The position numbers and the translations under genes are program-made. DNA of 64,000 bases, taken from assembly GCF_903645355.1 (NCBI RefSeq), contig NZ_CAHJXR010000005.1, positions 186,001 to 250,000 on the forward strand. The letters run 5' to 3'. Source of the DNA: Schaalia sp. Marseille-Q2122. GTDB lineage: Bacteria > Actinomycetota > Actinomycetes > Actinomycetales > Actinomycetaceae. The notes beneath the pieces are model-generated. The model was not told where the DNA came from. It was given only the letters and a program-made list of their open reading frames with translations, and did not search any database. Positions 24,321 to 55,818 of this stretch are shown one piece after another (positions within the stretch are counted from its first letter, which is position 1; the number at the start of each line of letters is the position of its first letter).

Positions 24321-24331
24321 CCCCCCCCCCC
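24321..24331. repeat. Homopolymer tract of eleven C
   Basis: Eleven consecutive C lie in the promoter region of the ABC-transporter operon, about 10-25 bases upstream of an AT-rich -10-like stretch (TATGTAATAT near 24341-24350). Length changes by slippage could alter promoter spacing; this is inference. Confidence 0.8.
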
Positions 24332-24398: not shown

Positions 24399-25433
24399 AT
24401 GGCACTATCTCTTCGGCATATTGGTCTTGGCCTGACAGGGGTCCTCATTGTTGGCGCTCTGGGCGCCACGCTCGGAGCCCTCACCTTTGCTCCCCCAGTT
24501 CCCAGTTCCTTGAGCACGCCCCCTTCCATTACCTCAGCAGCTGTGAGCAGTCGCTCCTTCGTTGATGAACGCACCGTGACTATCACTCTCAAGATCAAAG
24601 AAGCCGATGCTGCCGTTACTCCACGAGCCGGACGTGTCACAGCGCTGAATGTTACCCCTGGTAGCGAGCTCACCTCCGGCTCTCCTATGCTCAGCCTTGA
24701 CGGTCATCGCATTATCGCTCTTCATACTGCAACGCCTCTCTATCGCGAAATCAATGACGAGGCAGTCGGCACCGATATTGAAGCTCTTCAAAACGAACTC
24801 GTTAACCTTGGTTACGACATTGCTGTCACCGGCCGCGGCAGTTGGGGCACACGTTATGCTCTAGCTGACCTGCTCGACATTGATGACGGTAATGGCGGTG
24901 TGCCCGCCTCGATCCCCCACGACCTTATCTTCTGGCTGCCTGCCCAGAAGGTCAACGTTAAGGCTGTCAACGCACACCTGGGCGACGTGCTAGAACCCAA
25001 CGCTGAGCTGGTGACGCTCACAGGCGGGGCGAGTAGCGGCTTCATTACCCTGCCACCGGGAGCTGTTGACGGCTCGCGCGTCCTTAAAGTCAGCGGCAAG
25101 GACTACCCCGTTCCTGACACCGGCATTATCGAAGATCAAGCTCTCCTCCAGGCCATCGTTGCTTCTGAGGCCTACACCTTTGGCCAGATGCAACAGCAAG
25201 GCAAGGAGGACGCGGTGCTGTCTTTACCGTGGAAGCTCGCTGAGCCCATTGACGTGCAGGCTGTGCCTGCTGCGGCTCTCTTTGATGTCACGCCTGAGAC
25301 GGCATGTGTCTCCAGTGGGGGAAAGATCCTACCTGTGACGATCATTGCCTCTGAACTGGGACAAAGTTTCATCACCACCGCCGAGCCTCTGACCGAGGTT
25401 GACCTGCAGGTGGAGGGCCTGAAATGTCCGTGA
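24399..25433 (+). CDS. Membrane-fusion-like protein with peptidoglycan-binding-type segment
   Basis: The 344-residue product has one N-terminal hydrophobic helix (about 9-30) followed by an outer-facing region. Residues about 65-110 look like the lipoyl/hairpin part of membrane fusion proteins (PRAGRVTALNVTPGSELTSG), and about 115-145 resemble a peptidoglycan-binding-1 helix set (VGTDIEALQNELVNLGYD). AAGGAG precedes the ATG. It overlaps the ATPase gene by ten bases. With the ATPase and permease it forms a MacAB-like export unit adapted to a Gram-positive wall. The substrate is unknown. Confidence 0.72.
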   Translation: MALSLRHIGLGLTGVLIVGALGATLGALTFAPPVPSSLSTPPSITSAAVSSRSFVDERTVTITLKIKEADAAVTPRAGRVTALNVTPGSELTSGSPMLSLDGHRIIALHTATPLYREINDEAVGTDIEALQNELVNLGYDIAVTGRGSWGTRYALADLLDIDDGNGGVPASIPHDLIFWLPAQKVNVKAVNAHLGDVLEPNAELVTLTGGASSGFITLPPGAVDGSRVLKVSGKDYPVPDTGIIEDQALLQAIVASEAYTFGQMQQQGKEDAVLSLPWKLAEPIDVQAVPAAALFDVTPETACVSSGGKILPVTIIASELGQSFITTAEPLTEVDLQVEGLKCP

Positions 25434-48622: not shown

Positions 48623-48781
48623 GGTTTTCTCCTTAGGAATTCGAGGGCGCTGGGTCCACTGAGCATGATCCTCAGAGGTGAACCAGAACCGAGAAGTAAT
48701 TTTGCCACTAAAGGGCCGTGGCGTCTATGCGGCACCCCTCCCCACACCGTGACATCCCCGACATCGCTACGTCCGGCCCCC

Positions 48782-49636
48782 TCACAGTTGAGCAGCCAGA
48801 GAGCGCCCCTGTTCAGCAACCTCCAATGAACGTCGCAGCAGATCTCGCACTGTCTGCCCCGTCACGGGAGAATAGGCCCTAATCCCTTCCAAGGACACTG
48901 CTGACGCTTCAGTGGCCAGAGCATCAGTATTGTGCCGATGGGCGTTCACGTGCGCGACCAATCGCGCATACTCAGCCGGATCTTCCCTGTAGGAATCAAG
49001 CGCCGCAACGAGTGCGTTGTAGCTGCGCTGAGCATCACCAATATTGTTCTGAATGCGTTGCAATGCAGCCTGGTTGGACGACTTGCGCCGCAGGATCACC
49101 ATCCATAACGTGCCTGTCAGCACGAGCAGAGCAAAGCCCAGCACATCCCAGCTGTAGCCACCGCGCCGTCCGCCACTATAGTCAACAGTCGAGGAGAGCT
49201 TGCGAGCTACTTTCACCAGGTTCTCGCTCACGGAATCACTCGAAGAATCCATGAAGAACTCTTCCTGTGACTCCCCGGCGAAGAAGCCCAATCTCAGCCT
49301 GTCACCCACAAGATAGGCGTACTCACCCGTGCTGGGGCGCGCACTCAACACAAGCGAACGGTCACGAGGGACACCCACGTAGGACCCACCAAGGAAGGAT
49401 TCTTCTGGTGGCAGCTGCCTGCCAAAATCCAAGGTTGCTTCGGTCAGTGATCTGGAGGTGTCCTCATGAAGGAGGACGACATGAAGCTCCACCCCGTTGG
49501 TCTTAAAGCCGACATTCTCAAGAGCATCACGCAAAGCATGTGCGTCCACACTGGCCGTCGTGTCATGGATCGCAACGCTGCGCGCAGAAAAGCCTAGAAC
49601 GTGACGTGTGAGAAGGATGCTGCCACCTGCTCCCAC
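48782..49636 (-). CDS. Array member 5: TPM/DUF5129-like membrane protein, N-terminus disrupted
   Basis: The open frame from GTG 49636 gives 284 residues: an outer-domain remnant (SARSVAIHDTTASV, matching the VYD motif of the other members), a central helix (about 150-170, WDVLGFALLVLTGTLWMVIL) and a helical cytoplasmic tail. The frame continues upstream without a usable start and encodes the rest of a first membrane helix (WLAAVIVLSLIAVGAGG), back to a TGA. The only good ATG, at 49748 behind GGAAGAAAG, is in a different frame. A single-base indel near 49690-49748 would join them. It may be a pseudogene or a sequence error. Length and tail are shorter than in the neighbours. Confidence 0.6.
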   Translation of the reverse strand: MGAGGSILLTRHVLGFSARSVAIHDTTASVDAHALRDALENVGFKTNGVELHVVLLHEDTSRSLTEATLDFGRQLPPEESFLGGSYVGVPRDRSLVLSARPSTGEYAYLVGDRLRLGFFAGESQEEFFMDSSSDSVSENLVKVARKLSSTVDYSGGRRGGYSWDVLGFALLVLTGTLWMVILRRKSSNQAALQRIQNNIGDAQRSYNALVAALDSYREDPAEYARLVAHVNAHRHNTDALATEASAVSLEGIRAYSPVTGQTVRDLLRRSLEVAEQGRSLAAQL

Positions 49637-49865
49637 AGCAATAAGGCTGAGTACGATAACCGCAGCAAGCCAAGCGTGAGCAGACTTGTGGGCTAAGAAT
49701 CCCAGCAGAGATGCGGAGGGCCTCTGTGACTTCCTCGGTCTCAGTCATATGCATCTTTCTTCCGTCGACCCCTTGTCCTGATACGGCTCCGGGGCAGTCA
49801 ACACCTCGAGAATACTCCCCCATCGCTCTCAGTAGAGCACTTTGGGCGGTCCCCGTGATCCTCTT

Positions 49866-51482
49866 TTAGTAGGACGAGGACGACCCCGAGCCGGAAAACC
49901 CCCCCCCCCCACCGCCGTAACTCGACGAACTTGATGAACTTGACGAACTCGTCGAGCCAGAACCTCCAGAGCTTGAAGAGCTCGACAGTGATGCGGTGTA
50001 GTCAGGATTAATCCGTGATGACGCATATCCAACGACCACTCCAGCCAAAGCAGAATTGGACACCGAGGAAGAACTACTCGAACCGCCAATCGCGGTGCCT
50101 GCACGGCGACCACGATTCGCGCGAATGGTACTCCCTGGCCGGTAGGTCTGGACCTGCCCTTGCTCTCTCCAGCTCCCCCGGTAGGGGGTGCCATTGCCGG
50201 TGAAGAGGTCATCAACGTCAGAGGTGCCCACGTTTTCACCCCGTTGACGGGCAGCACGCATGGCCGCTTCCAAGATCTCACGTGACAGATTCCAGAGCAT
50301 GCTGCTCATCCGGTCCAGCTCACTGAGCGCATCCGAGGGGCTCAGTGTCCTTGCCTCAAGCTCCCCCGCCATCGCCCACAGTCGATGGCGAGCCTTCAGA
50401 GCTTCAGCGCGCACACTCGTACGAAGCCCCTCAGAGATGCCACGCGCATCACTAATGAGCTCCTCTAAAGAATCAATGTCCTCATAGAGGGGACCGGTTT
50501 CATTCCTCCAGACCTCGGGCCAGCGCGGGGCCATTGACAAGAAAGCGGCCGTATTCGAAATACCATCATCGACAGCATTCAGAGCCAAGGCCTTATCGCG
50601 TAGGATCCGCGTATTCTTCACGCCCCGAGGATAGAGTGATTCGATGAAACCCAGCGAGCCGAAGTCTTGGAACATGCGCGTGAGCTCGTGATAGTCACTG
50701 AGGTACTGCTCATACCGTTCGTAGACTCGTCTGCCGTGAATATCTGTCTGATCAAGGACTCCCGCATCAATGCTCGTCGCCTCAAAATCCTGAGTGACCT
50801 GCGCATAGTTTGTCCGCGCCTCCTCAAAAAGACGCTTACTGCGCGCCCGATGGGTATAGCGGCTGACGAACCACGACACTCCAATAATGCTGGCAACAGA
50901 GGAGGCCACCCACCCAAGGATGCTATTTGCCCACGAGGTATCAATAGCGTCCGCCACTGACTGAGCCCCCGTGTAGAAGGCTTCATTGAACTCCATGGCA
51001 CGAAGGTTGTCCTTCATGCTCTCTTGAATAGCAAGCTGAGCGTTGATATCCAGACCGAAATCCTCACCAAAGAAGGTGCCGATATTGCGTTCATGGGGGG
51101 CCAAGGACAAAATCACGGTCTGGTCGGCCCAAAAACGAGGATCCTCCGCAGAAATCCACGGTTCCTTCAATTCGGCGGTGCGCCCATATTCCAGGGTTCG
51201 ATAATTCAGGCTCTCTCCATCCAATGACGGCAAGGTCAAGATGGAAATCTTCACCGGTCGGACAAACTCAATCCCCGAAATGGCGTCAATCACCTGCCGA
51301 TCAGACAGGATCCCGGCCTCGTCGTAGACGTGCACGCTCACAGGCGGCTGGGTAGCGGGTTTGCCAAACAATTGGAGAGCGGGGAAAGCCGCCAGTGCGG
51401 CCAGCGCAACCAGAAGGCCGATCAGCAGGCGGAGTCCCCCCAATGCCCCAGCATGGCGGATCCCTTCATTTGTCCGGGTCAT
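49866..51482 (-). CDS. Array member 4: TPM/DUF5129-like membrane protein with Ser/Gly-rich tail
   Basis: The 538-residue protein has a first helix (about 14-34), then VSVHVYDEAGILSD opening a TPM-like outer domain (about 45-180), a second helix (about 185-205) and a long helical region with FQDFGSLGFIESLYPRG, a motif shared with members 1 and 2. From about residue 440 it becomes extremely Ser/Gly-rich, resembling the low-complexity ends of TPM-domain proteins. The final residues are encoded across a 12-G tract. The ATG at 51482 follows GGGAGG. The outer domain could bind metal or act as a phosphatase-like module, but no catalytic site can be confirmed. Confidence 0.8.
   Translation of the reverse strand: MTRTNEGIRHAGALGGLRLLIGLLVALAALAAFPALQLFGKPATQPPVSVHVYDEAGILSDRQVIDAISGIEFVRPVKISILTLPSLDGESLNYRTLEYGRTAELKEPWISAEDPRFWADQTVILSLAPHERNIGTFFGEDFGLDINAQLAIQESMKDNLRAMEFNEAFYTGAQSVADAIDTSWANSILGWVASSVASIIGVSWFVSRYTHRARSKRLFEEARTNYAQVTQDFEATSIDAGVLDQTDIHGRRVYERYEQYLSDYHELTRMFQDFGSLGFIESLYPRGVKNTRILRDKALALNAVDDGISNTAAFLSMAPRWPEVWRNETGPLYEDIDSLEELISDARGISEGLRTSVRAEALKARHRLWAMAGELEARTLSPSDALSELDRMSSMLWNLSREILEAAMRAARQRGENVGTSDVDDLFTGNGTPYRGSWREQGQVQTYRPGSTIRANRGRRAGTAIGGSSSSSSVSNSALAGVVVGYASSRINPDYTASLSSSSSSGGSGSTSSSSSSSSSSYGGGGGGFSGSGSSSSY
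49899..49910 (-). repeat. Poly-G tract (12 G on the minus strand) inside a coding end
   Basis: Twelve consecutive C on the plus strand encode four glycines near residue 525 of array member 4. With 11 G the frame would continue to 49829 and give a 23-residue Arg/Lys/Pro-rich tail. With 13 G it would run to about 49798 with a hydrophobic stretch (VVLVLL). The present length gives a Ser-rich end at 49866. Confidence 0.85.
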
Positions 51483-51502
51483 CGGAACCTCCCTTTTCAG
51501 CC

Positions 51503-53008
51503 TCAAGGCCTAGAATACTGTTCCCACGGATCAGGGCGGCGAACCCACTCCTGGAGTGCCCGAACCAAGGCCCTCACAGACACGTAGTGGGCAACGCTGC
51601 ACCCCGCTACCGCACGAGGGGGCTCTTCAGCCAGCCGGTAGCGCATGAGATTCTCACGCAAATCCTCATCCTGCGGATCAGGCTCCCTCTCCTCCATCTC
51701 TATGACCTTGTCATCGAATCTGTCATTAAAGGGAGGAACCGTATACCCCTGCAGTGCCATCTCGTCAGGGATCTCCACCAGCACTAAACGGCGCAAACGC
51801 TCATCGCAACGGCGCAGCGCTTCCAAAGCCTCAGCGCCCTCAATCTCCCCCACTGCGAATGCGGCGCCAACTCTCTCACACTCAGCGACGACCTCGTCAG
51901 GTATCGCAGCCACGCGGGATCCAACCGGGCTCTCCACGAGGGGATCACCCCAGGCGTTATCAAGGAACGCCTGCGCGGCCTGACAATCCTCGTAAATGCT
52001 CGCAACTTCCTCAGCCCAGAGCCTTTCCCAGCCCTCAACACGAGAGAAGGAGGAAACACTCGCCGTCCTCGTCCAATCCGAACTCTCCAAGGCCACCACT
52101 CGACGCTGGACCTCCTCGAGCCTCTCCGTAGCAGCCTCTGACGACATCTGCGCCACACTCAAGGACTGAAGAGCAAGCACCTCACGCAGGCACGCCTCAA
52201 TCTCATGCTCATCACGCTCAACCCGGCGCAGCATGGCCGAGACTTCCGAAGAGGAGGATGCATGCAGGAGAGCACTTTGTCGATCCTCAGCATTAGCCTG
52301 TTCAAGGGCACGCAAACGCCGGACAAGGGCGGTGCGTCCCCTGAGATTGTCACGCAGATTCAAGATTGCCCCCAGCGCAGCAATCAAGCCCACGATCGCG
52401 GCGCCCCCCAGGAAGAGCGGAAGCAGTTTCTGCCACCACGGCCGATCGGGCAGCAAGGAGGAAGGCTGAGCCTGCGACACCTTAGCAACAATGCGCGAAC
52501 CCAAAACGTCGGCAGGAAGATCAGGGGAAAGACGGCTCTCCTGCAGGCTCTCCGGGGAGAGATGAAGGTCAATGAAAGCACCATGAGACATCAATGCCGC
52601 ATTCTGATTCGGAACAAGGACAAGCATGATGAGACCGTCTGCCCACTCCCACTGCGAGCCTGTCGTGTCCTCATAGACCCACGGTTTTTCTGTGGAGTGA
52701 CTCAGTGCGTAATTCTTTACCTCTTCCTTGGCTTCCTCTTCGCTCGTGGCTTCCATGTCCATTGTCAGAACGGCAATGTGGACAAAGCGTGAGAGGGGAA
52801 GAGCCTCAAGCTCCGCTTCAAGCTCCTGGGCGTTGAGGATCCCCGCCATGTCGTGCACCTCTGCGGTAGGCAACTGATGGAGGCGCCACACCCACAATGC
52901 CCCAAAGATCAGTGCAGCAATGGTCGCAATCCCCAGAACCCAGGCAAGGACAAAGCGAAAGGCTGCCACAGGCCGAGACGGGATCGGAGCTGGAGACATG
53001 GTCGACAT
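51503..53008 (-). CDS. Array member 3: TPM/DUF5129-like membrane protein
   Basis: The 501-residue protein has a first helix (about 18-40), TAEVHDMAGILNAQELEAEL at the outer domain start (about 45-180), a second helix (about 187-212) and a long, mostly charged helical cytoplasmic region. The LGFxES motif of the other members is not obvious here, so this is the most diverged full-length copy. AAAGGATG precedes the ATG. The gene ends 20 bases before member 4 begins. Function unknown. Confidence 0.78.
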   Translation of the reverse strand: MSTMSPAPIPSRPVAAFRFVLAWVLGIATIAALIFGALWVWRLHQLPTAEVHDMAGILNAQELEAELEALPLSRFVHIAVLTMDMEATSEEEAKEEVKNYALSHSTEKPWVYEDTTGSQWEWADGLIMLVLVPNQNAALMSHGAFIDLHLSPESLQESRLSPDLPADVLGSRIVAKVSQAQPSSLLPDRPWWQKLLPLFLGGAAIVGLIAALGAILNLRDNLRGRTALVRRLRALEQANAEDRQSALLHASSSSEVSAMLRRVERDEHEIEACLREVLALQSLSVAQMSSEAATERLEEVQRRVVALESSDWTRTASVSSFSRVEGWERLWAEEVASIYEDCQAAQAFLDNAWGDPLVESPVGSRVAAIPDEVVAECERVGAAFAVGEIEGAEALEALRRCDERLRRLVLVEIPDEMALQGYTVPPFNDRFDDKVIEMEEREPDPQDEDLRENLMRYRLAEEPPRAVAGCSVAHYVSVRALVRALQEWVRRPDPWEQYSRP

Positions 53009-53097
53009 CAGTCATCCTTTGGCGGTAGAGCACTGTCACTGCCTCCAAGTTTGCCACGCCAACGGTGAGTTCACGCGCTCATCGGCTCAGGAGCGCT

Positions 53098-54099
53098 TCA
53101 ATGCTGGTATTTTCGCGCTGCCATTTGCCCCAAGCGTGCCCTTCGGCGTCTCATACGCAGACCAAAGCCTGGTGGCAATCGAAGCTCACGCTGTGCATCG
53201 CGCTCAACATCTATAAGGACAATGCCTTGCCACCACAGAGCCTCGGCCTGGTCACCGGCCAAAGCCGTGAAGGACTCCCAAAACCCTAGTTGCCCAAAGT
53301 CGTTCAAGGCTGCCCGGAAAGCGTCATAGCTCGCCATATACTCGTGCAATTCTTGCTTCATTCGCTCCGTTTCATCGCCCGTGGCTTCGGCATAGGCATA
53401 CTGAGCTTTCCATTCATCAACGAGAGCATGGGAGCGGCTAAAACACTCCTGAGCCTGCCTGAAAGCCACGGTAGCGAAGCGGCGCCGATAGAAAAGCACG
53501 ACAAACCAGCTCACCCCCGCTGCAGAAAGGACGAAGGTGAAGAATCGGAGGGTGTAGCTACCCCAAAGAGTTTCATCCACTTCACTCACATAGGCCTTCA
53601 GCGCACGTTCAACACCTTCATCGAAATGGCTCGTTTCATGCGCATTCTCAATGGCCCTGACGACTAACAGTCGCTCGCCCGGGGTGTTGCGAAGGTCATC
53701 GGCCTCAACGATGCTCACCTGCCCAAAGTCATGGGACAGCACGAGTGCAGCCAGTCCTTCCTGCCATCGGCTGGGAGTGCCTTCATCGACCCACTCCAGC
53801 TCCGGGTGCTTAGCCGCATGCCCTCGAAGCAGTATCTCTGGATCGCTGGGCACAAACCCATCGGAGACGAAGACGACGAGGTGCAGGACGCGGTGTGTCC
53901 GCTGTCTGGCGAGGCGATTACTCAACTCCGTTTCGTTGAGTTGTTTCGTCGCATCGTAAATGTACACGGAGTCAATCGGGTGCTCCTCCTCGCCACCGAA
54001 AACATAGAGAGTGGGAAGGGCAAACACTGCAAATAAAGCGAAGACACTGACCAATGCGTAGGTGAATAACGCTCCTGACGGCCGAAAGTTGGATGTCAT
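53098..54099 (-). CDS. Array member 2: short TPM/DUF5129-like membrane protein
   Basis: The 333-residue protein keeps the plan: helix one (about 10-32), SVYIYDATKQLNETEL starting the outer domain, helix two (about 188-210), then LNDFGQLGFWESF in the cytoplasmic part. It ends early with a basic MRRRRARLGQMAARK tail and lacks the long C-terminal region of members 1, 3 and 4. The ATG overlaps the stop of member 1 (ATGA) with GAGGCAGG just upstream, so the two are coupled. Confidence 0.78.
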   Translation of the reverse strand: MTSNFRPSGALFTYALVSVFALFAVFALPTLYVFGGEEEHPIDSVYIYDATKQLNETELSNRLARQRTHRVLHLVVFVSDGFVPSDPEILLRGHAAKHPELEWVDEGTPSRWQEGLAALVLSHDFGQVSIVEADDLRNTPGERLLVVRAIENAHETSHFDEGVERALKAYVSEVDETLWGSYTLRFFTFVLSAAGVSWFVVLFYRRRFATVAFRQAQECFSRSHALVDEWKAQYAYAEATGDETERMKQELHEYMASYDAFRAALNDFGQLGFWESFTALAGDQAEALWWQGIVLIDVERDAQRELRLPPGFGLRMRRRRARLGQMAARKYQH

Positions 54100-55655
54100 T
54101 CCTGCCTCACATTCTCGATGTTGAGCATCTTCAGCCGTTGCTCGTAGACACAGCGCAAAGCCCCCATAGAGCCGAGGAATGCCTCCGTGTCGTCCTCGTC
54201 CTCCTCCCCCGCGTCGGCTTTCCTCTTGCGGGCCACGGCGAGGAAGTATTCCTCCTCACGCCCGGACACATCAGGAAGACTTCGCCAGTCGACGTCAAGC
54301 AGATCGCGGTGAAACTCCTCCTCAAGCTGTGCACGCACCTTCTCGTAAAGCTGTGCCTCCACATTAAGCGTGCCTTCTTCGATCAGAAGGATCTCCTGCG
54401 CGCAATGACGCACCGCAATCTTCCAGGCCTGACGCTTCAGATCACGCCGCAGCGCCGCCAATCGACGAAAGGCTTCGACGATGTCAATACGCCCCTCCCT
54501 GTAATCCCAGGTGATCGCACTCAACTGAGACTTGAAGGTCTCCGACGTAACATCTCCCGCGCTCAGGGCGCTTCCCGATGGCGCTTCATAGGCTCTCATC
54601 CACAGCAATCCGTAGTGACGGATACTTTCGTGGACGCGTTCGACATGCGTCTTCCAGCGCTGAGCTCCGGCCGCATTGCCGGTAATCAGATCGGCGATTC
54701 CCTCGCGCTCAGCACTCAAGGTCCTGAGTCCCTCAAGGGCCGATTCAAAGCGTCCTATGCTCTTTTCGGCCGTTGGCGTGCAGGACTCAAGGAACCCTAG
54801 TGGCAGGTAGGAGGCCATTGATGTCTCCCACGCTTCGATACTATCCACATACCGCTGGTAATGCGTGAGGGCATCAAGGGCGTGCATATCGGCAGCCAGG
54901 ATCCTCTCTACCTCTCTGAAGCGCTCCAATGCCTGGCTCTCAAGCTCACGATACTGCGTGAGAATCCACGCAAGACTCTTCCGGTTTCGCACCCCCACAC
55001 TGTCAATCTCCACAATGACAAAGGCGGCGACCACAGCAACGAACATAGCAAAGAAAAACCCAAGCAGGTGCGGGTAGAGCCCAGAGTCAAGGCGATCGAT
55101 CTGACGGCTCACCACCGCCTCCAGTGCATCACTTGGAGTCTGGGCCTGCGAGTTCCAATACACCGCTGCAAATAGGGCATCACAGGTTGCTTCATCGCTG
55201 CATAAATCTGGCGACACCGCAGCCCACATCTCATTATCCGCGCTCATGGCCATCACGATGACGCGCCCCCTCAGGCGTGGATCTGGCAAGAACGGTGAGG
55301 CTGGCCCCTCCTTCGCCCCTGGGACAAGCCATCTGTCCACATGCGGGTTACTCTGCAAGAAACTCCACAGCTCTGCGTCGGGCCGCACCCCGTGGCCACT
55401 GTCAACGCTGACGACAATGACAGCAAGGTCTTCGTCCAAGACGTGAGCTTTCAGGCTGCGATACAGGCTGTCGCCGTCAAGGATCTGCGCCCTGTCATAG
55501 ACCCGCACTGTCTCAAGGGGATGTTTAGTGTTGATGAACAGAGCCACAAGTGCCAGAAACGAGGCAATGAACAGGAGAAAACTCAGCACAAGGATGACAG
55601 CGACCCGAGCTCTCTCCCGTGGAGGTGAGTGTAGTTGCGGGATCGTGGTGTTCAC
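54096..55655 (-). CDS. Array member 1: TPM/DUF5129-like membrane protein
   Basis: The 519-residue protein begins with a basic N-terminus, helix one (about 20-42), VRVYDRAQILDGDSL opening the outer domain (about 45-190), helix two (about 200-222) and a long helical cytoplasmic region containing YLPLGFLESCTPT. It ends near an acidic stretch (GEEDEDDTEAF). The GTG at 55655 is preferred because AAGGA lies seven bases upstream; an ATG at 55676 is in frame without such support. It is the first gene after rho, behind a strong terminator, so the array probably has its own promoter near 55680-55800. Confidence 0.78.
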   Translation of the reverse strand: MNTTIPQLHSPPRERARVAVILVLSFLLFIASFLALVALFINTKHPLETVRVYDRAQILDGDSLYRSLKAHVLDEDLAVIVVSVDSGHGVRPDAELWSFLQSNPHVDRWLVPGAKEGPASPFLPDPRLRGRVIVMAMSADNEMWAAVSPDLCSDEATCDALFAAVYWNSQAQTPSDALEAVVSRQIDRLDSGLYPHLLGFFFAMFVAVVAAFVIVEIDSVGVRNRKSLAWILTQYRELESQALERFREVERILAADMHALDALTHYQRYVDSIEAWETSMASYLPLGFLESCTPTAEKSIGRFESALEGLRTLSAEREGIADLITGNAAGAQRWKTHVERVHESIRHYGLLWMRAYEAPSGSALSAGDVTSETFKSQLSAITWDYREGRIDIVEAFRRLAALRRDLKRQAWKIAVRHCAQEILLIEEGTLNVEAQLYEKVRAQLEEEFHRDLLDVDWRSLPDVSGREEEYFLAVARKRKADAGEEDEDDTEAFLGSMGALRCVYEQRLKMLNIENVRQE

Positions 55656-55818
55656 ACATGCGTCCTTGTGTCTCATGGAGGAGCGGTTTTACTTTTATTC
55701 ATTATGGCGAGAAAAGTCTCATGCGTCTGCACTTTCGCGCCGACGGAAGAGACAGCCCTTCGCAAGCATCTCTTTGACTGACGCACGATCACCGGTCCAG
55801 CCACTTGGGCACAGTAAT

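What the first reader, a model, noticed from the sequence alone, without database searches (positions are those of the whole stretch)
48782..55655. Five-gene tandem array of TPM/DUF5129-like membrane proteins inserted between rho and rpmE
Five consecutive same-strand genes share one plan: first helix, an outer domain opening with a VYD-like motif (VRVYDRAQIL, SVYIYDATKQL, AEVHDMAGIL, VHVYDEAGIL, VAIHDTTASV), a second helix near residue 200, and a charged helical cytoplasmic part. Members 1, 2 and 4 share an LGFxES motif. The sequences are otherwise very diverged and lengths run from 284 to 538 residues. They interrupt the conserved rho-rpmE neighbourhood, and a strong terminator isolates them from rho. 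A diverged paralogue set of this kind suggests a hetero-oligomeric envelope complex or variable surface module. No function is known to me.
Basis: partly seen in the sequence, partly recalled or inferred. Interest (0 to 1): 0.8.

Follow-up and report, generated by a model that had tools for sequence, protein, structure and literature searches.

The report
Membrane-protein gene array with one archetype
Five neighbouring genes in a Schaalia genome are diverged copies of one membrane protein family with a TPM-type outer domain; only one copy keeps the full family design, which would fit a mixed-subunit membrane-maintenance complex, but no function has been tested.

Summary
Between rho and rpmE lie five same-strand genes of one family: a profile without window or S. 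canis rows finds each at E 4e-15 or better. Gene 4 is a full-length DUF5129 protein whose outer domain is predicted to have the TPM fold (closest solved: BA41, TLP18.3, Psb32). Genes 1, 2, 3 and 5 are degenerate paralogues.

New points. Only gene 4 keeps the family's cytoplasmic tail (FSG[SA]GSS[SR]F). Arrays in other lineages, which look separately formed, are often similarly asymmetric, and some members there lack the outer domain. The site is occupied in 15 of 33 Schaalia genomes and in 0 of 25 fetched loci of other genera. Window and S. canis arrays look mosaic: synonymous divergence of genes 1-2 is below core genes, of genes 4-5 above. Gene 5 seems frame-shifted at its start. A 12-G tract precedes gene 4's tail.

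Best reading: a lineage-specific hetero-oligomeric TPM membrane anchor of the kind that serves PspA/SPFH membrane repair (YdjH-like). This is inferred, not shown. An exchanged surface module is the main rival.

The parts
54096..55676 (-). g1, 526 aa (519 from the GTG at 55655): TM1, diverged outer domain, TM2, helical cytoplasmic part, no tail
   Evidence: model; fold
53098..54099 (-). g2, 333 aa, outer domain kept, short cytoplasmic part, no tail; start overlaps the end of g1 by 4 bases
51503..53008 (-). g3, 501 aa, DUF5129 above the Pfam cut-off (53.9 vs 27.3 bits), no tail; 47% identical to its S. canis orthologue
49866..51482 (-). g4, 538 aa, the only canonical member here: TPM outer domain, cytoplasmic helical domain, Gly/Ser-rich tail ending FSGSGSSSSY
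48782..49744 (-). g5 reading frame (320 codons), outer domain kept, short cytoplasmic part; no standard start ahead of TM1, apparent frame shift beside the S. canis orthologue
49899..49910 (-). G12 tract in g4, directly before the conserved tail; the longest G/C run in the 2.7-Mb genome
55814..55859 (-). strong hairpin after rho (21-nt arms, 4-nt loop), no T-run
48623..48709 (-). leader upstream of rpmE, similar to that of several species that lack the array; so the array sits between rho's hairpin and rpmE's own upstream region
   Evidence: blastn; promoter function inferred

Best explanation
The locus is a lineage-specific array of DUF5129/TPM membrane proteins. Gene 4 is the archetype: TM1, outer TPM domain, TM2, cytoplasmic helical domain and conserved tail. 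Genes 1, 2, 3 and 5 are degenerate paralogues that I take to be accessory subunits. Most likely they form a mixed membrane complex whose outer domains hold or sense envelope components, while the cytoplasmic parts recruit membrane-repair or assembly factors, as the TPM protein YdjH anchors PspA and the SPFH protein YdjI in B. subtilis. Shown here: common ancestry, two-helix topology by hydropathy, a TPM fold model for gene 4, asymmetric composition, turnover and mosaic divergence. Inferred: complex formation, partners and function.
Against: The array is not next to pspA, which in this genome is on another contig. The cytoplasmic part of DUF5129 is not detectably related to that of the PspA-linked TPM proteins (hhalign 1%), and the TPM-only profile gave 0.2% against them; the 96% match of the whole profile includes TM1. 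No complex was predicted. The missing TPM domain beside pspA and the five-gene array coincide in two sister species, so that is one event at most. 18 of 33 Schaalia genomes lack DUF5129 at this site, so it is dispensable for the genus, and some arrays are broken (L013, L066). Arrays that do not fit one-tail-per-array: G134 2 of 2, G112 0 of 4, G121 0 of 2.
Confidence: 0.4

Rival explanations
1. A variable surface module: the outer domains are recognised by phages, epibionts or a host, and the array evolves by duplication, loss and exchange between species.
For: Between window and S. canis dS is 0.38 (g1) and 0.48 (g2), below rho 0.88, prmC 1.23 and prfA 1.33, while g4 and g5 are at 1.9 and 2.4 and g3 is beyond the method; nucleotide identity falls from about 86% to under 60% near 53200. 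Presence across Schaalia needs at least 5 changes. A tract that could vary gene 4's tail. 'TPM domain' is listed as enriched in TM7x-resistant and nonpermissive Actinomyces, 10/10 and 3/3 against 4/10 permissive (PMC7784981, section 16 read).
Against: Outer domains are at most slightly more diverged than cytoplasmic parts: g1 82.9% vs 84.3%, g2 79.5 vs 79.9, g3 51.4 vs 44.5, g4 74.7 vs 79.9, g5 42.9 vs 44.3 identity. Members that lost the outer domain and kept the cytoplasmic part suggest the inside matters. The TPM entry of the TM7x paper cannot be tied to this array. PADLOC has no match.
Confidence: 0.25
2. Mostly neutral tandem duplicates of one DUF5129 gene that decay in a permissive gap between rho and rpmE.
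For: Broken copies in L013 and L066, a decayed tail remnant in L063, no genes but kept flanks in L068 and L073; g5 apparently frame-shifted at its start.
Against: g1-g4 are intact ORFs in both window and S. canis, with gene order kept at 47-83% identity (g5 46%) and dN/dS 0.09-0.25 where measurable.
Confidence: 0.18
3. A membrane-bound phosphatase/ATPase family, as the Pfam name TPM_phosphatase suggests.
For: TPM fold of gene 4.
Against: A published analysis considers phosphatase activity unlikely (PMC12419801, passage). Of 35 columns conserved in canonical outer domains g4 keeps 25, g3 14, g5 12, g2 10 and g1 7.
Confidence: 0.06

Closest known systems
DUF5129 (PF17173), e.g. C. glutamicum cg3192
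   Same: g4 and g3 pass the curated cut-off; canonical members share TM1-TPM-TM2-helical part-tail
   Different: Mostly one copy per genome elsewhere in the order; here five diverged copies, three of them below the Pfam cut-off
TPM domain proteins (PF04536): TLP18.3, Psb32, BA41, cg2496
   Same: Predicted fold of the gene 4 outer domain
   Different: Long extra cytoplasmic helical domain; degenerate tandem partners
PspA-linked TPM proteins (B. subtilis YdjH; Schaalia pspA-side TPM genes)
   Same: TM1-TPM-TM2-helical part, tandem copies with a tail on one member in G009 and G042
   Different: Not beside pspA; cytoplasmic part not detectably homologous
TPM-like chain of the mycobacterial bc1-aa3 supercomplex (6adq_J, 8hcr_J)
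   Different: One subunit of a respiratory complex, no array known to me

Membership tests
DUF5129 (PF17173) | Match above the curated score cut-off: g3, g4 | tested here: met
   53.9 and 186.1 bits against 27.3
DUF5129 (PF17173) | Match above the curated score cut-off: g1, g2, g5 | tested here: not met
   none, 16.9 and 14.0 bits; homologues by the session's own profile but not filed as Pfam members
   g4 alone of the five; 34 of 82 family ORFs overall
TPM domain (PF04536) | Sequence profile above cut-off | tested here: inconclusive
   g4 21.8 bits and 25.2, cut-off 22.1; the other four not reported at E up to 1
TPM domain (PF04536) | TPM fold, gene 4 | tested here: met
TPM domain (PF04536) | TPM fold, gene 1 | tested here: inconclusive
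TPM domain (PF04536) | TPM fold, genes 2, 3 and 5 | not tested
PspA-linked TPM (YdjH-like) | Adjacent to pspA | tested here: not met
   pspA at G000:C4:8880, array on C5
PspA-linked TPM (YdjH-like) | Homologous cytoplasmic coiled coil | tested here: inconclusive
   hhalign 1% for the cytoplasmic profile; no detectable kinship, which does not exclude it
PspA-linked TPM (YdjH-like) | Binds PspA/SPFH and recruits them to the membrane | not testable with these tools
   needs experiment

The most novel reading that the evidence does not exclude
In this Schaalia lineage the envelope-stress anchor was rewired: the pspA-side TPM protein lost its outer domain, and a horizontally exchanged five-subunit DUF5129 complex supplies the outer domains instead. 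Its only tail-bearing subunit is phase-variable through a G12 tract, because a single-base slip would replace the conserved tail, so cells would switch the link between the complex and its cytoplasmic partners on and off.
Probability: 0.08. Interest if true: 0.78.

Novelty: new variant of a known kind. Interest (0 to 1): 0.5.

Why it matters
TPM proteins are widespread and their role is disputed (phosphatase, or assembly factor for membrane complexes). Gene arrays that keep one full member and strip domains from its partners give a natural dissection: they suggest that outer domain, cytoplasmic part and tail are separable functions. One Schaalia genus offers genomes with zero to five copies at one site, which makes the role of these proteins testable.

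Tried and rejected
Anti-phage defence: no PADLOC match for the five proteins at E up to 0.1. NCBIfam: one match far below its cut-off. Solved relatives by sequence: phmmer with g4 gave only E 0.11 and 0.87. Neighbours as a clue: nine neighbour proteins from four other DUF5129 loci gave mixed, mostly housekeeping families (clusters); no common partner seen. A single origin of the Schaalia rho-locus members was neither shown nor rejected (p-AU 0.66 and 0.59). Much faster evolution of outer domains: not seen. TM7x link: the paper's TPM entry cannot be tied to this array; 34 of 35 Schaalia genomes have some TPM match. Length of the G tract as evidence in itself: rejected; base composition alone would give about 1.6 runs of 12.

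Papers: DUF5129 is in 1 paper of the library. 'TPM domain' + tandem + Actinomyces and 'poly-G tract' + phase variation + Actinomyces gave no paper. Searches gave listings. Seen beyond listings: passages (PMC7775120; PMC11237479; PMC12419801; PMC11189923; PMC7719681; PMC8581546), and for PMC7784981 a passage, the outline with abstract and section 16.

Dropped rows: 16 of 82 family ORFs (broken, fragmentary, or the short g5 start) were left out of the trees and g5 put back in its longer frame (67 rows; recount); 7 long-branched or short rows were left out of the clade test (60 rows). L049 repeats L008 and was left out.

Full report
WHAT IS THERE. The window lies in a genome whose held genus also contains G122; G122's contig has the length (144,935) and the interval of the named S. 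canis record L008, so I call the genus Schaalia. Between rho and rpmE on the minus strand are five genes: g1 55676-54096, g2 54099-53098, g3 53008-51503, g4 51482-49866 and g5 in the frame 49744-48782. g1 and g2 overlap by four bases; g3 and g4 are 20 bases apart. Rho ends in a strong hairpin without a T-run (not listed by the scan), and the leader before rpmE resembles that of several species that lack the array. A transcription unit of its own is likely, but inferred.

GENE 5 IS DOUBTFUL. No standard start lies in frame ahead of its first helix. The ATG in the expected place is in another frame, and alignment with S. canis shows a one-base length difference there. Either the gene is disrupted in this strain, the assembly has an error, or an unusual start is used. 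The rest of the frame has evolved under constraint (dN/dS 0.21).

ANATOMY OF THE FAMILY. Canonical members have TM1, a TPM outer domain, TM2, a helical cytoplasmic part and a Gly/Ser-rich tail that ends FSG[SA]GSS[SR]F (the strict pattern fits 34 of 82 family ORFs). In the array only g4 has all of this. g2 and g5 keep the outer domain but little of the cytoplasmic part. In the three-gene Schaalia arrays (L010, L011, L012, L067; in L014 the third gene is cut short; L013 and L066 are broken) the middle gene is canonical (in L066 without tail) and both neighbours lack outer domain and tail but keep the cytoplasmic part. In G100, another genus of the family, two of six have the tail and one lacks the outer domain. 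Arrays that do not fit one tail per array: G134 two of two, G112 none of four, G121 none of two. The cytoplasmic-part tree puts the genes of the three-gene arrays in one clade (16 rows, SH-aLRT 100) apart from the G100/G112 arrays, so mixed arrays look to have formed more than once; the place of the window's own deeply diverged members is unresolved.

DISTRIBUTION. In Schaalia 16 of 35 genomes have a DUF5129 match. Of 33 whose rho locus was fetched, 15 have family ORFs after rho; in G042 rpmE was not found in the fetched stretch and in G145 the contig ends before rpmE. G124 has its copy elsewhere. None of 25 fetched rho loci of other genera (25 of the 114 other-genus genomes with rho; rpmE placed in 22 of the 25) holds a family ORF, and none of the nine other-genus genomes with a DUF5129 match has it near rho. 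On a rho+prfA tree presence needs at least 5 changes. L063 holds a decayed tail remnant, and L068 and L073 lack the genes but keep flanking sequence. In the wider family 16 of 121 and in the order 26 of 198 genomes have a match at E 0.001.

MOSAIC. Between window and S. canis, synonymous divergence (NG86) is 0.38 (g1) and 0.48 (g2) but 0.88 for rho, 1.23 for prmC and 1.33 for prfA; g4 and g5 are 1.9 and 2.4, and g3 could not be computed. Identity drops sharply near position 53200; upstream of that the nucleotide identity of g1-g2 is much like that of rho, so the case for recent exchange of g1-g2 rests on dS. The simplest reading is exchange between lineages of one block or the other; different codon constraint is possible but would have to change abruptly. 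Outer domains are at most slightly more diverged than cytoplasmic parts.

THE G12 TRACT. The tail of g4 is preceded by 12 G. The genome has runs of exactly 8 (10), 9 (1), 10 (2), 11 (3) and 12 (1). By base composition alone one would expect about 187, 57, 17, 5 and 1.6: long runs are not in excess of chance, but short ones are strongly avoided, so the ladder is oddly shaped. In 1.2 Mb of loci fetched by then the only runs of 9 or more are the window's own site seen twice. One run of 10 lies in the first codons of a DNA methylase gene (L099, PF01555), a setting known from phase-variable methylases elsewhere (recalled). Other runs lie in ORFs that look like housekeeping genes (recalled names) or in no clear gene. 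A slip of one base would replace the tail. The S. canis site is interrupted. Variation itself is untested.

A FUNCTIONAL LEAD. In 24 of 29 PspA-bearing Schaalia genomes a TPM match lies within 8 kb of pspA. In G009 and G042 this is again a tandem set (three TPM matches each) with a tail on the first member only, directly before pspA. In window genome and S. canis the protein at that place matches the cytoplasmic part (39%) but has no TPM domain; loss is the likelier direction but was not tested. A third TPM protein in the window genome lies next to a membrane protein with CxxC motifs (zinc-ribbon-like by eye) and, on the other strand, an SPFH/Band 7 protein. In B. subtilis YdjG and YdjH are needed to bring PspA and the SPFH protein YdjI to the membrane, and YdjH interacts with itself, YdjG, PspA and YdjI (PMC8581546, passages; that YdjH is a TPM protein, PMC11237479). 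TPM proteins have been proposed to help assemble membrane complexes. The DUF5129 kinship to the PspA-linked proteins is only through the TPM part: hhalign gives 96% for the whole profile (TM1 included), 0.2% for the TPM part alone and 1% for the cytoplasmic part. C. glutamicum cg3192, a DUF5129 protein, lies at the edge of its envelope gene cluster; a transposon hit beside it may act on glfT2 instead.

CONCLUSION. I take the array for a lineage-specific, hetero-oligomeric TPM membrane anchor with g4 as its core. Kinship, anatomy, turnover and mosaic divergence are shown; complex, partners and function are inferred. It is a new variant of a known kind of protein. I found no description of such arrays in the searches named under Tried and rejected.

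Noticed in passing
L099:3-1535 (G000:C1 near 178080): DNA methylase gene (PF01555, 3.6e-34) with a run of 10 C in its first codons; a candidate phase-variable methylase, in frame in this assembly.
   Followed up: partly
window 24321-24331: Run of 11 C, 67 bases before the start of a 344-aa ORF (24399-25433) with an N-terminal hydrophobic stretch; possible length-variable upstream region.
   Followed up: partly
L122:9695-11182 and L123:8261-9763: pspA-side relative of TPM proteins without a TPM domain: membrane hairpin plus cytoplasmic part.
   Followed up: partly
L117:6519-12466, L118:5699-13195: Second kind of TPM tandem array, directly upstream of pspA, with a Gly/Ser-rich tail on the first member only; L118 holds a fourth, shorter ORF of the same look.
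   Followed up: partly
L024, L039, L051, L056, L058, L062 (stretch after rho): Other ORFs after rho in other species (by recalled resemblance: transpeptidase-like, alanine-dehydrogenase-like, inositol-phosphatase-like, repeat protein); the interval looks like a general insertion site.
   Followed up: no
L014, about 4.6-6.6 kb past rho: In G042 the third array gene is cut short and followed by a 639-aa ORF that resembles ribosomal-protection tetracycline-resistance proteins (recalled, not searched); rpmE was not found in the fetched stretch.
   Followed up: no
PMC7784981 Table 1: TPM domain listed among functions enriched in TM7x-nonpermissive and resistant Actinomyces; not tied to this locus.
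   Followed up: partly
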